This document shows, one piece after another, positions 1,160 to 3,267 of a stretch of DNA of 64,000 nt (position 1 is its first letter; every line of letters begins with the position of its first letter). A model generated the notes under the pieces. That model was not told the origin of the DNA. It saw only the letters and a list, made by a program, of their open reading frames with translations, and searched no databases. The stretch is from contig CP051243.1 of assembly GCA_017795025.1 (NCBI GenBank), positions 1,736,001-1,800,000 of the forward strand, in the 5' to 3' direction. The position numbers and the translations under genes were made by a program. The stretch comes from Flavobacteriales bacterium. Its GTDB lineage: Bacteria > Bacteroidota > Bacteroidia > Flavobacteriales > Schleiferiaceae.

Positions 1160-2257
1160 CTAAGCAGAGGAGAAAATTTCGCGAAGTTTCGCACCGAGGT
1201 CGCCCCCGTTAATCGTAATCTCTCCTACTTTGTCAACTACCTTTTCTAGGTATTCCATTTCCTTCAGCTTCCAAAGCATAGGATTGTTTTCCATCAATTT
1301 GGCAGTATTCATCAAGCTTCGGGTTGAGCTGGTTTCCTCTCGACGCATAATCGAGTTGGCTTCCGCTCTTTTTTCGGCTACCAAAACTTGATTCATGATC
1401 TCTCGCATTTCACCAGGCAGAATGATATCGCGAATACCTACTTCCATCAATTCAATACCCAACTCTCGCATTTTAGGTGCTACCGCTGCAGAAATCTCGG
1501 CCGCTAAGCGCAACTTGCTTTTTAGCAATTCGTCGAGACTTAATTCGGCAACGAAGGCCCGCAAGGCCAAGGCTAAAAGATGGTAGGCTTGCTTTTGGTA
1601 GTTTACATTTTCCAAAAGGGCCTTTTCAACATCTACCACCTTCCATTCGGCCAAAAGGTTCATCCGCAAGGCAGCCTTATCGGCACTTAAAAGCTCTTGA
1701 CCGCTTAGCTCCATACTTTGACGCTTTAAATCGGCCTTAAGGAGCTTCATACTATTTTGGTTATTCCAGTAGAAGTATTCACCTGGACCAAGTGCCTTCA
1801 ACAGCTTATTATCCATTAACAGCAATCCAGCCTCAGCTTCTTCCACCTTAAACACTCTTAGGTAACCCGCCGCTGCTAAGCTTGCCCGGTAATCGGGCTT
1901 TAGATTAGCGGGAGGCTCCAAGTCATTAAGGTTAAAAACCAGTATTTCGGTCGCGAAGCGTCCTTTCCAGTAGGCGGTGAAACCAGGCAAAATTTGCTCT
2001 TTGATCACCCCATTTTGAATCACCAATCCCCTTTCATTTTGAGCAAGTCGCGCCACATGGGCATACTTGTTCAGGAACTCCAGGTTAAGCAAGGGATCTA
2101 CCGATGCGGGAAGTACTACTTTATCTCCCATCTTAACTCGATAAAGGCTCCGGTTGGTCCAGATCCAATTTCGACCTTCGGTAAATACTTTTTCAATAAG
2201 TCCATTTTTCACTACTAAAGTGAGGTAACCACGAGGGTTACGAATTAAACGTAACAT
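1160..2257 (-). CDS. Slipin-family (SPFH/Band 7) protein
   Basis: This is a 365-residue protein. Its first half holds three similar segments (GLIEKVFTEGRNWIW, GVIKEQILPGFTAYW and LLKALGPGEYFYW). An SPFH/Band 7 core follows, ending in the slipin-typical DIILPGEMREIMNQVL and VAEKRAEANSIMRREET, a long amphipathic helix. I see no hydrophobic membrane segment, so a cytosolic or peripheral scaffold is likely. SPFH proteins form ring-like oligomers. In many bacteria slipins accompany RtcB/Ro60/Y RNA repair loci, and here the gene lies just downstream of a Y RNA-like element on the same strand, which makes an RNA-related role a reasonable inference. Its own promoter is not clear, and it may be read through from the RNA. 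Confidence 0.85.
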   Translation of the reverse strand: MLRLIRNPRGYLTLVVKNGLIEKVFTEGRNWIWTNRSLYRVKMGDKVVLPASVDPLLNLEFLNKYAHVARLAQNERGLVIQNGVIKEQILPGFTAYWKGRFATEILVFNLNDLEPPANLKPDYRASLAAAGYLRVFKVEEAEAGLLLMDNKLLKALGPGEYFYWNNQNSMKLLKADLKRQSMELSGQELLSADKAALRMNLLAEWKVVDVEKALLENVNYQKQAYHLLALALRAFVAELSLDELLKSKLRLAAEISAAVAPKMRELGIELMEVGIRDIILPGEMREIMNQVLVAEKRAEANSIMRREETSSTRSLMNTAKLMENNPMLWKLKEMEYLEKVVDKVGEITINGGDLGAKLREIFSSA

Positions 2258-2515
2258 AGTTTCATTTTTTTGGGAAATCCCCGGTTAAACATAAATACCA
2301 AGGGCAAGGCAGCAGGGGCATTATTCCTTTGGGGAATAAAGTTGATCACCGCTCCAATAGCCGGCATTTTGAATTAGCGTTCAAGCAATACTCAGCCTCC
2401 GGTTTAATAACCGCCTGCTGTTGACCGGTCGTAAGCGACCAGCCTTTTTACCCTTTAACACCTTGGTATTGATTCATTTTAAAGAGTGAATCATACTCTG
2501 TTCCTTGGTAGCTTA
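2258..2515 (-). other. Structured untranslated leader between the Y RNA-like element and the slipin gene
   Basis: This stretch has no gene but several helices on the minus strand: GGTCG-CTTA-CGACC (2427-2440), CGGTT-ATTA-AACCG (2400-2413) and TTATTCC-CCAAA-GGAATAA (2321-2339). The segment GTCAAC-A-GCAGG (2425-2414) can pair with CCTGC-ACG-GTTGAC at 2529-2516. None of the hairpins is followed by a T run, so they do not look like terminators. I did not identify a known riboswitch class. Confidence 0.4.
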
Positions 2516-2700
2516 GTCAACCGTGCAGGATCACTAAACCGAAACCTACTGGCTTATAATCCAGAGTTTGCGCTCTACCAACTGAGCTATCTCCACCAAA
2601 AGGAGAGTGGGATTCGAACCCACGACACCAAACGGGCTTGCCATTGATTGCTTTATAGGGCGGCATACTGTTTCCAGCACCATGGTGACCTACAGAGACA
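2516..2700 (-). ncRNA. Y RNA-like (YrlA-type) RNA with a circularly permuted tRNA-like module
   Basis: Read 5' to 3' on the minus strand, the 3' half of a tRNA comes first: anticodon-stem strand GTTTG (2633-2629), five variable bases, T-arm GTGGG-TTCGAAT-CCCAC (2623-2607) and acceptor strand TCTCC (2606-2602). A 7-nt loop follows, and then the 5' half: GGAGA (2594-2590), TA, D-arm GCTC-AGTTGGTA-GAGC (2587-2572), G and CAAAC (2570-2566). The acceptor arm is thus a closed hairpin and the anticodon stem is open. The open end continues into nested pairings: TGGC/GCCA (2643-2640/2553-2550), GAAAC/GTTTC (2674-2670/2545-2541), and a 9-bp helix with one bulged T (2693-2685/2534-2525). This is the topology known for bacterial Y RNAs, which hold Ro60 with the terminal stem and mimic tRNA at the other end. 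The ends are approximate. No Ro60 gene is in the window. Confidence 0.7.
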
Positions 2701-2745
2701 CCTATCGTGGTCCCCCCGGCGCAATCTCACCGTATTTTAATGCGT

Positions 2746-3267
2746 TTAGCGCTTTACTTTCGACTTTGCCGTTTGCTTGGCTTGGAGCTTTCGCTTCTGC
2801 TTGAGCATGTCAATAAACTGCTCAATACGATCCTTTTGCTCGGGACTTTTAGATAATAAAATTAGCCTCTTATAATAATTTATAGCCAATTTAAATTCCA
2901 TTTTTAAGTCCATTATATAAGCCATATAGGCAATTTTCTGCATCTCAGGCATGGGCACTTTACGGTTGATATAATCCAAAAACCGAAGGGCTTCATTCAA
3001 TGCTCGGGCTTCAATCATGCAATTGAGCAAGGCCGCTGCCGCGCAAGGATTTTGCGGATCCAGAGCTACGGCTCGTTCGGCTAATTCTCGCGCTTGCCCT
3101 ATCCAATTAAGGTCGTAGAGATAATAGCGTGATTTCAAACACAAACTTGCTTGGTGCTCAGGATCATAGGCCAAAGCATAGTCCAGATTCTCTTCAACCT
3201 CTGCAAGATCAAAGGGATAAGCGTCGTAAGCTTTTAAATAATAGGAAGTAACTAGTGAAGTTGACAT
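2746..3267 (-). CDS. Small TPR-like repeat protein
   Basis: This 173-residue protein is almost all alpha-helical, with tetratricopeptide-like pairs: NLDYALAYDPEHQASLCLKS, ARELAERAVALDPQNPCAAA and a further pair ending LAINYYKRLIL. It ends in a lysine-rich tail (KQKRKLQAKQTAKSKVKR). There is no signal peptide, so it should be cytosolic, and the basic tail could bind RNA or DNA. It ends 46 nt before the Y RNA-like element on the same strand and may share a transcript with it. A terminator-like hairpin in its leader (3317-3348) suggests attenuation. The function is unknown, and the TPR assignment is by repeat pattern only. Confidence 0.7.
   Translation of the reverse strand: MSTSLVTSYYLKAYDAYPFDLAEVEENLDYALAYDPEHQASLCLKSRYYLYDLNWIGQARELAERAVALDPQNPCAAAALLNCMIEARALNEALRFLDYINRKVPMPEMQKIAYMAYIMDLKMEFKLAINYYKRLILLSKSPEQKDRIEQFIDMLKQKRKLQAKQTAKSKVKR

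What the first reader, a model, noticed from the sequence alone, without database searches (positions are those of the whole stretch)
2516..2700. Circularly permuted tRNA-like module in a Y RNA-like non-coding RNA
On the minus strand a tRNA 3' half (T-arm, acceptor strand) precedes the tRNA 5' half (acceptor strand, D-arm). The acceptor arm is closed by a 7-nt loop, and the anticodon stem (GTTTG/CAAAC, exactly 5 bp) opens into a nested stem that ends in a 9-bp helix with one bulged base. This is the published layout of bacterial YrlA-type Y RNAs, which tether Ro60 to nucleases and mimic tRNA. Neither Ro60 nor RtcB is near it here. If it is a Y RNA, it would be an orphan copy in a TPR/slipin context.
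Basis: partly seen in the sequence, partly recalled or inferred. Interest (0 to 1): 0.85.

Follow-up and report, generated by a model that had tools for sequence, protein, structure and literature searches.

The report
Slipin-linked RNA that mimics tRNA
A bacterial stretch of DNA most likely encodes a structured RNA that imitates a tRNA with its two halves swapped; it sits next to a gene for a presumed ring-forming protein in dozens of related bacteria and probably belongs to a system that copes with damaged tRNA.

Summary
Window 2633-2566 (-) is a complete circularly permuted tRNA module; a model built without its genus scores it 69.7 bits, E 1.9e-21 in the whole genome. Its helices covary across Bacteroidota relatives. 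The Y RNA reading holds only for the module. No Ro60 and no RtcB were found in the genome. The RNA has a covarying 5' three-way junction and a conserved 3' hairpin. The TPR/slipin context is its native home: 14 of 14 slipin-bearing genomes of the family have a module just upstream of the slipin gene, and all 10 RtcB-bearing family genomes are among those 14. In relatives the locus often also carries ordinary tRNA genes, up to 18. Ro60- or RtcB-linked YrlA RNAs share the module but lie in another setting. Vault/Band-7-like proteins with operon ncRNAs and RtcB are a published prediction, so this is a variant of a known kind: RtcB-less, one module. Proposed role, inferred: RNA part of a slipin RNP that handles damaged tRNA or baits tRNA nucleases. 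Transcription is untested.

The parts
2657..2715 (-). 5' three-way-junction domain of the RNA: P1 (2715-2712 with 2660-2657), P2 hairpin (2702-2684), P3 hairpin with conserved TA bulge (2681-2662)
   Evidence: covariation over 16 loci: 11 of 15 pairs with two-sided changes, 58 cells vs 20.6 shuffled; coordinates
2566..2633 (-). circularly permuted tRNA-like module: 39-43 strand, T-arm (2623-2607), self-closed acceptor arm (2606-2590), D-arm (2587-2572), 27-31 strand
   Evidence: R1 69.7 bits, E 1.9e-21 in the genome; RF02553 38.7 bits; covariation; coordinates
2549..2564 (-). 4-bp hairpin with 8-nt loop (CTGG/CCAG), at the place where many relatives have a second module or an anticodon arm; weak
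   Evidence: sequence; relatives
2470..2493 (-). conserved 3' hairpin, 7 bp, loop CTCTTTAAAA
   Evidence: hairpin with this loosely defined loop type in 44 of 88 loci vs 5% of shuffles
1160..2257 (-). slipin gene (365 aa, SPFH/Band 7), directly downstream and co-directional; three SPFH1-like repeats, SPFH domain, long helix; no transmembrane segment by hydropathy
   Evidence: Pfam PF01145; AF2 model pLDDT 80.6, pTM 0.57; repeats; hydropathy; linkage
2746..3267 (-). TPR protein gene directly upstream, co-directional; homologous to TPR genes in related loci
   Evidence: Pfam TPR_19; homologues in 17 of 80 loci and 7 of 13 family/order loci
2730..2740 (-). TTAAAATACGG box between the TPR stop and P1, shared as TTAARATACGG with the four same-genus homologues; possible promoter or processing site, untested
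   Evidence: sequence comparison by eye

Best explanation
Window 2715-2470 (-) most likely encodes a structured non-coding RNA of the slipin-linked, tRNA-mimicking class. Shown by comparison: (1) a three-way junction at the 5' end; (2) a permuted tRNA module whose acceptor end is closed by a short loop, so that it has a tRNA elbow but no chargeable end; (3) a 3' hairpin; (4) a recurrent place directly upstream of, and on the same strand as, a gene for an SPFH/Band-7 slipin without a predicted membrane anchor. Inferred: the slipin assembles into a ring or cage and holds this RNA; the tRNA mimic then recruits or baits tRNA-acting enzymes (RtcB ligase where present, processing enzymes, tRNA nucleases) during tRNA damage, beside the reserve tRNA genes that many of these loci carry. 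In this genome RtcB and the tRNA array are missing and one module is left, so what remains (TPR, RNA, slipin) would serve an RtcB-independent part of the job, such as holding or decoying damaged-tRNA enzymes.
For: Module and covariation. 5' domain. 3' hairpin. Slipin is the first same-strand ORF over 110 aa downstream in 13 of 13 first loci; a module upstream in 93 of 97 slipin loci (one contig counted twice, G026 = L096) against 40 hits in 903,076 nt of control sequence. Reverse test from the RNA: of the 29 best non-window R1 loci in 392 phylum genomes, 7 are ordinary tandem tRNAs; of the other 22, 17 have the slipin within 1.5 kb (one of these, L195, also has an ARAGORN tRNA call overlapping the hit). 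RF02553 over 30 bits in 10 of 88 family genomes, all among the 14 with slipin. RtcB in 10 of 88 family genomes, all among the 14 (Fisher p 2.2e-10, not corrected for kinship); RtcB homologues within the held stretch (up to 5 kb each side) in 33 of 80 named loci. The module is kept in the 4 slipin genomes without RtcB (three of them draft assemblies), so it goes with the slipin. tRNA genes: 319 same-strand upstream, 0 opposite strand upstream, 3 downstream. A slipin beside rtcR in Citrobacter. An SPFH gene in the P. aeruginosa rtc locus (PMC13086221, passage). A slipin co-regulated with rtcB and a tRNA operon in Anabaena (PMC10272220, passages). [quoted passage not shown]
Against: No transcript, binding or phenotype data. 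No RtcB and no PF09414 RNA ligase were found in the genome, so repair by RtcB is not expected here. In the slipin loci the RNA always precedes the slipin, which a cis-acting leader would also explain. Four of 97 slipin loci show no module (L074, L085, L104 with only 62 nt of upstream sequence held, L120). In three relatives (L061, L065, L066) Rfam's tRNA model passes its threshold inside the multi-module RNA, and ARAGORN calls a tRNA there in a few more (for example L007): a collinear reading of one module's D-arm with the next module's T-arm competes with the permuted one, and in L061 the acceptor strands fit both.
Confidence: 0.6

Rival explanations
1. Cis-acting leader: the tRNA-like structure is part of the slipin mRNA 5' region and controls slipin expression by being bound, cut or modified by tRNA enzymes, like tRNA-mimicking leaders.
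For: Co-directional with and directly upstream of the slipin in the loci seen; the scan shows no terminator-like site between module and slipin on the minus strand.
Against: Operon RNAs such as YrlA also lie beside their partner gene yet act in trans (recalled). The leader would have to hold a 5' junction, up to three or more permuted modules and anticodon arms in relatives, more than known leaders need (judgement).
Confidence: 0.2
2. Decoy or bait for anticodon nucleases: the modules and their exchangeable anticodon arms soak up or sense tRNA-cutting toxins.
For: Later modules have a perfect 5-7-5 anticodon arm in 29 of 42 units (69%) vs 33% shuffled; 26 of the 29 loops have U33, all 29 a purine at 37, with 11 different 34-36 triplets. 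Arrays of further tRNAs in the same loci.
Against: The window copy has no anticodon arm: a 4-bp stem with an 8-nt loop stands at that place. In Salmonella, YrlA was not cut by the nuclease that cuts tRNAs (PMC7790460, passage); those authors suggest it may inhibit the nuclease competitively.
Confidence: 0.25
3. A true YrlA-type Y RNA that tethers Ro60.
For: Same permuted module; RF02553 E 4.5e-7 on the 481-nt stretch.
Against: Below the gathering score (38.7 vs 69). No TROVE match in the genome or in 88 family genomes. 5' domain of another kind. YrlA RNAs of other genomes of the phylum pass the threshold (L204 73.2 and 73.0, L206 83.8 bits) and carry GGCGAATGCC..GGRACTACAT-type flanks.
Confidence: 0.03
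4. A circularly permuted tRNA gene whose transcript is ligated and processed to a working tRNA.
For: The order of parts is that of permuted tRNA genes; RtcB, a tRNA ligase, is linked in relatives.
Against: In the window the anticodon loop is missing: the stem opens into flanking RNA and no anticodon can be read. No RtcB found.
Confidence: 0.03
5. Remnant of two tandem tRNA genes with no function of its own.
For: Ordinary tandem tRNA pairs do score with RF02553 and R1, up to 68.5 bits with R1.
Against: Local acceptor pairing (at least 4 of 5 inner pairs in 96.5% vs 22% shuffled) and the 5-bp anticodon stem are kept with compensatory changes in 86 unique loci; place kept beside the slipin across Bacteroidota.
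Confidence: 0.02

Closest known systems
SPFH/Band-7 (vault-like) proteins with operon-linked tRNA-like ncRNA in RtcB repair systems (Burroughs & Aravind 2016, abstract recalled, paper not held; cited to that effect in PMC13404743)
   Same: SPFH/Band-7 gene, operon-linked tRNA-like RNA, RtcB in many relatives
   Different: No RtcB found in the window genome. The RNA is built of permuted modules with a 5' three-way junction; whether the 2016 paper describes this layout I could not check
YrlA, bacterial Y RNA (Rfam RF02553)
   Same: Circularly permuted tRNA-like module with closed acceptor arm and anticodon stem as the neck
   Different: No Ro60 found; different 5' domain; sub-threshold Rfam score
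Vault particle (major vault protein and vault RNA)
   Same: SPFH protein without predicted membrane anchor, with N-terminal beta repeats and a long helix after the SPFH domain; among the 50 entries listed, the only alignments that start before residue 100 are to MVP (3/4-324, Z 10.5-12.4); small RNA encoded beside it
   Different: 365 aa with three repeats; the repeats alone resemble SPFH1 of erlin/HflK best (Z up to 6) and MVP only weakly (Z 4.0); no evidence of a cage
Anabaena trn operon with co-regulated rtcB and slipin (PMC10272220, passages)
   Same: tRNA array, RtcB and slipin answer to one repressor, relieved under translational stress
   Different: There the genes lie apart under TrcR; in many Bacteroidota loci they lie together with the tRNA-like RNA

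Membership tests
Slipin-linked tRNA-like RNA (the class described here) | Permuted tRNA module with covarying acceptor, T, D and anticodon helices | tested here: met
Slipin-linked tRNA-like RNA (the class described here) | Directly upstream of and co-directional with an SPFH/Band-7 slipin | tested here: met
Slipin-linked tRNA-like RNA (the class described here) | 5' three-way junction and 3' CTYNTAAAA-type hairpin | tested here: met
Slipin-linked tRNA-like RNA (the class described here) | RtcB in the genome (10 of 14 slipin genomes of the family): a usual companion, not a defining feature | tested here: not met
   no match either in G015, G021, G023, which are drafts
YrlA / bacterial Y RNA | Rfam RF02553 score at or above gathering (69 bits) | tested here: not met
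   38.7 bits; positive control: 3 matches over gathering in L204 and L206
YrlA / bacterial Y RNA | Ro60/TROVE protein encoded in the genome, normally adjacent | tested here: not met
   0 in the genome, 0 of 88 in the family
YrlA / bacterial Y RNA | Permuted tRNA-like module | tested here: met
YrlA / bacterial Y RNA | Binds Ro60 | not testable with these tools
   needs biochemistry; no Ro60 found
Permuted tRNA gene | Complete anticodon loop that can yield a decoding tRNA | tested here: not met
   anticodon stem opens into flanks; ARAGORN finds none
Major vault protein (for the slipin) | N-terminal beta repeats with the MVP fold | tested here: inconclusive
   three mutually homologous repeats; N-terminal model: best rows erlin/HflK/prohibitin Z 4.4-6.0, MVP Z 3.7-4.0
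Major vault protein (for the slipin) | SPFH domain followed by a long helix, no membrane anchor | tested here: met
   (prediction only)

The most novel reading that the evidence does not exclude
A bacterial counterpart of the vault: a soluble slipin with SPFH1-like repeats forms a cage that holds a long RNA strung with permuted tRNA mimics. In relatives these carry exchangeable anticodon arms that bait whichever tRNA nuclease attacks, while the same locus supplies replacement tRNAs and, often, RtcB to mend the cut ones. The window genome would be a natural experiment in which the RNP works without the ligase.
Probability: 0.2. Interest if true: 0.9.

Novelty: new variant of a known kind. Interest (0 to 1): 0.62.

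Why it matters
The kind (Band-7/vault-like protein, operon ncRNA, RtcB) has been predicted, but no Rfam 15 family other than tRNA passes its threshold on the RNA in the window or in the 9 relatives scanned. The comparative structure here gives a testable model: 5' junction, permuted modules, 3' hairpin. The link to tRNA arrays, and the absence of RtcB from a complete genome, separate the question 'what does the slipin-RNA pair do' from 'what does RtcB do'. It also shows the YrlA-type tRNA-mimic module in two settings with different protein neighbours, Ro60 and slipin, which suggests that tRNA mimicry, not Ro60 binding, is the common core.

Tried and rejected
Rfam gathering scan of the window: no hit. 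Whole-stretch MFE folding: uninformative. The Rfam RF04351 match on the + strand (23.7 bits, gathering 68) is a T-arm resemblance and was dismissed. RF02553 and R1 scores alone do not prove the class: tandem tRNA genes give 36.9 bits with R1 in the own genome and up to 68.5 bits in other genomes (L181); 299 of 392 phylum genomes have an R1 match at E <= 1e-6 and I examined the 30 loci fetched for the best matches only; 9 of 14 control genomes ring with RF02553, none over the cut-off. I therefore used the slipin neighbour and anchor-only pairing as independent tests. PF09414 as a replacement RNA ligase: none. Sigma-70 scan: 1 site found against 1.0 expected; TAYNTTTG: 18 in the window against 25 expected, none at the RNA. 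Viral contigs: 3 slipin relatives without the permuted pattern; phage records: no match. The N-terminal repeats as an MVP fold: inconclusive (no Foldseek match with E <= 0.001). Literature: 10 searches. Band-7/slipin with tRNA-like RNA gave 0 papers at 4 of 6 terms; no listed title or abstract start describes this RNA's structure. The key paper (Burroughs & Aravind 2016) and Chen et al. 2014 on bacterial Y RNAs are not held, so the novelty of the layout is not settled.

Full report
WHAT IS THERE. On the minus strand, window 2633-2566 reads: 5-nt strand GTTTG, 5-nt variable loop, T-arm, acceptor 3' strand, short loop, acceptor 5' strand, TA, D-arm, one base, CAAAC. This is a tRNA cut in the anticodon loop and joined at the acceptor end. 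ARAGORN sees no tRNA in the window. Rfam at gathering level sees nothing; with E-values, YrlA (RF02553) matches 2646-2544 at 38.7 bits against a gathering score of 69.

IS IT REAL. A structural matcher found at least one permuted module in 93 of 97 and at least two in 69 of 97 (some may be neighbouring ordinary tRNA genes); 88 of 97 have one with at least 4 anticodon-stem pairs within 1 kb. The same matcher gave 40 hits in 903,076 nt of downstream control sequence. With anchors on the T-loop and D-arm only, without any use of acceptor or anticodon pairing, 130 units were found in 87 of 97 loci, 128 of them unique. Of the 86 unique first units, 96.5% have at least 4 of 5 inner acceptor pairs (22% when partners are shuffled); 66% have a perfect 5-bp anticodon stem with a fixed 5-nt variable loop (16% shuffled); with the better of a 4- or 5-nt loop, 94% have at least 4 pairs. 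On 29 selected modules outside the window's genus, 18 of 21 pairs show changes on both sides, 166 cells against 48 in shuffles. A covariance model from these, R1, gives the window 69.7 bits, E 1.9e-21 in the whole genome; the next own hit, 36.9 bits, lies on a Tyr-Gly pair of ordinary tRNA genes. Ordinary tandem tRNAs in other genomes reach 68.5 bits with R1 (L181), so the score must be read together with the absence of tRNA genes here and with the neighbour.

MORE THAN THE MODULE. Upstream, 2715-2657 forms a three-way junction (P1, P2 with the loop around TCTCTGTAG, P3 with a GAAA loop and a TA bulge). In 16 aligned loci 11 of 15 pairs change on both sides, 58 cells against 20.6 shuffled, 92.5% of cells paired; the count of further pair types is not above shuffles (26 vs 25.3). 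Downstream, a hairpin with a CTYNTAAAA-type loop (pattern loosely defined) occurs in 44 of 88 loci against 5% of shuffles; the window has it at 2493-2470 with 7 pairs.

THE PARTNER IS A SLIPIN, NOT RO60. In 13 of 13 first loci the first same-strand ORF over 110 aa downstream is homologous to the window slipin. In the family (88 genomes) the slipin is in 14, RtcB in 10, TROVE/Ro60 in 0; all 10 RtcB genomes are among the 14 (Fisher p 2.2e-10, which ignores kinship). All 14 carry a permuted module upstream of the slipin, the four without an RtcB match (G000, G015, G021, G023; the last three are drafts) included. RF02553 exceeds 30 bits in 10 of the 88 genomes, all among the 14; elsewhere it stays at 29.3 bits or less. 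The window genome, one contig, 99.97% complete, shows no RtcB, TROVE or PF09414 ligase. Starting from the RNA instead: the 30 loci fetched for the best R1 matches over 392 phylum genomes are the window and 29 others. Seven of the 29 overlap ordinary tandem tRNA genes. Of the other 22, 17 have the slipin within 1.5 kb (one of them, L195, also has an ARAGORN tRNA call over part of the hit). Of the remaining five, three stand beside a TROVE/Ro60 gene (L205, L206, L207; L206 also has RtcB) and one (L204) beside RtcB; in the fifth (L203) the two neighbouring proteins tested are neither. Rfam YrlA passes its threshold in two of the five (L206 83.8 bits; L204 73.2 and 73.0) but not in L203, L205 and L207; two of the corresponding 3-kb loci (L185, L189) show GGCGAATGCC..GGRACTACAT flanks. 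So one kind of module occurs with two kinds of protein neighbour.

THE LOCUS IN RELATIVES. In the 80 named loci (stretches of up to 5 kb each side; ORF clusters, one representative each tested with Pfam) an RtcB homologue lies in 33, a TPR-like protein in 24, a WYL regulator on the opposite strand in 18, an RNase T-like protein in 13. The window TPR protein matches proteins in 17 of the 80. Upstream of the RNA on the same strand there are 319 ordinary tRNA genes in 313 kb, none on the opposite strand, and 3 downstream in 364 kb; 52 of 80 loci have at least one, 35 at least three, 16 at least eight, the largest, L099, 18. The window keeps TPR, RNA and slipin; it has neither tRNA array nor RtcB. 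In many relatives a later module is followed by a complete anticodon arm: 29 of 42 later units (69%) have a perfect 5-7-5 hairpin (33% shuffled), with loops such as CTTTTAA (11), CTCATAA (5) and CTGTAAA (2); 26 of 29 have U33 and all 29 a purine at 37. The window has a 4-bp stem with an 8-nt loop at that place. A result against the permuted reading in relatives: Rfam's tRNA model passes its threshold inside the multi-module RNA of L061, L065 and L066 (3 of 9 loci scanned), joining one module's D-arm with the next module's T-arm or reading a later unit as a tRNA; the acceptor strands of L061 fit both readings, those of G003 and G026 the permuted one better (sequence). In Citrobacter the slipin stands beside rtcR and a nucleotidyltransferase, and in an E. 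coli record beside a nucleotidyltransferase; a T-arm with a closed acceptor hairpin but no D-arm lies upstream in both.

THE PROTEIN. The 365-aa slipin has no transmembrane segment by hydropathy. The AF2 model (pLDDT 80.6, pTM 0.57) has three beta repeats, the SPFH domain and a long helix. The repeats are mutually homologous by hhalign (96-98%). The SPFH part matches stomatin, HflK/C and prohibitin (Z about 13-18, residues about 109 onwards); among the 50 entries listed the only alignments that start before residue 100 are to major vault protein (3/4-324, Z 10.5-12.4, 224-242 residues, rmsd 5.7-8.9). The repeats alone match SPFH1 of erlin/HflK best (Z up to 6.0) and MVP weakly (Z 3.7-4.0), so the vault link is suggestive only.

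HOW IT MOST LIKELY WORKS. Shown: the RNA fold by covariation, the slipin linkage, and co-occurrence with RtcB and tRNA arrays in relatives. Inferred: transcription; binding of the RNA by the slipin; action on tRNA-damage enzymes. The RNA has a tRNA elbow without a chargeable end, so it could attract proteins that grip the elbow but not enter translation. Where RtcB and further tRNAs are present the set looks like a response to tRNA cleavage. Here, without RtcB, a holding or decoy role is the simplest reading.

WHAT IS KNOWN. [quoted passage not shown] The abstract of that 2016 paper, as I recall it, names SPFH/Band-7 modules with 'a novel tRNA-like molecule'; the paper is not held. An SPFH gene lies in the rtc locus of P. 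aeruginosa (PMC13086221, passage); a slipin, rtcB and a tRNA operon are under the repressor TrcR in Anabaena (PMC10272220, passages); Salmonella YrlA is not cut by the tRNA nuclease (PMC7790460, passage). I therefore file this as a new variant of a known, little-studied kind.

TAXONOMY. Its order-mates include many 600-kb reduced genomes and its slipin's best named relatives are almost all Bacteroidota, so Flavobacteriales is likely (inference).

Noticed in passing
L099, L107, L103, L127, L114, L108, L082 (upstream of the slipin): Arrays of 13-18 ordinary tRNA genes on the same strand (two of L107's 18 lie downstream) ahead of the tRNA-like RNA and slipin: apparent reserve tRNA sets in Flavobacteriaceae and relatives, reminiscent of the Anabaena trn operon.
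   Followed up: partly
L108, L110, L134, L064, L065 (last module before the slipin): Permuted modules followed by full 5-7-5 anticodon arms with canonical loops and different anticodons (CAT, TTT, GTA, GTT and others).
   Followed up: partly
L208 around 5815, L209 around 5627: E. coli and Citrobacter: T-arm plus self-closed acceptor hairpin without a D-arm upstream of a slipin gene with a nucleotidyltransferase; rtcR beside it in Citrobacter.
   Followed up: partly
L204 7111-7555 (L185), L206 7729-7841 (L189): YrlA RNAs over the Rfam threshold, in tandem in L204, with an RtcB gene adjacent (and TROVE in L206).
   Followed up: partly
L203 (L180): Several tRNA-like, partly permuted units in a row with neither YrlA, Ro60, RtcB nor slipin identified nearby; class unresolved.
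   Followed up: partly
window 2740-2730 (-): TTAARATACGG box between the TPR stop and the RNA in the five genus members that have the locus; it fits no promoter consensus tried.
   Followed up: partly
L154, L155, L156: Three viral contigs encode distant slipin relatives without the permuted module pattern.
   Followed up: no
own genome C1:1675837-1676018 (L172) and many other genomes: Tandem tRNA genes mimic the YrlA and R1 models (R1 36.9 bits here, up to 68.5 bits elsewhere), a pitfall for sub-threshold YrlA annotation.
   Followed up: yes
L079:2975-4114 (-) and similar in 18 of 80 loci: WYL-domain regulator on the opposite strand upstream, a possible stress regulator of the locus.
   Followed up: no
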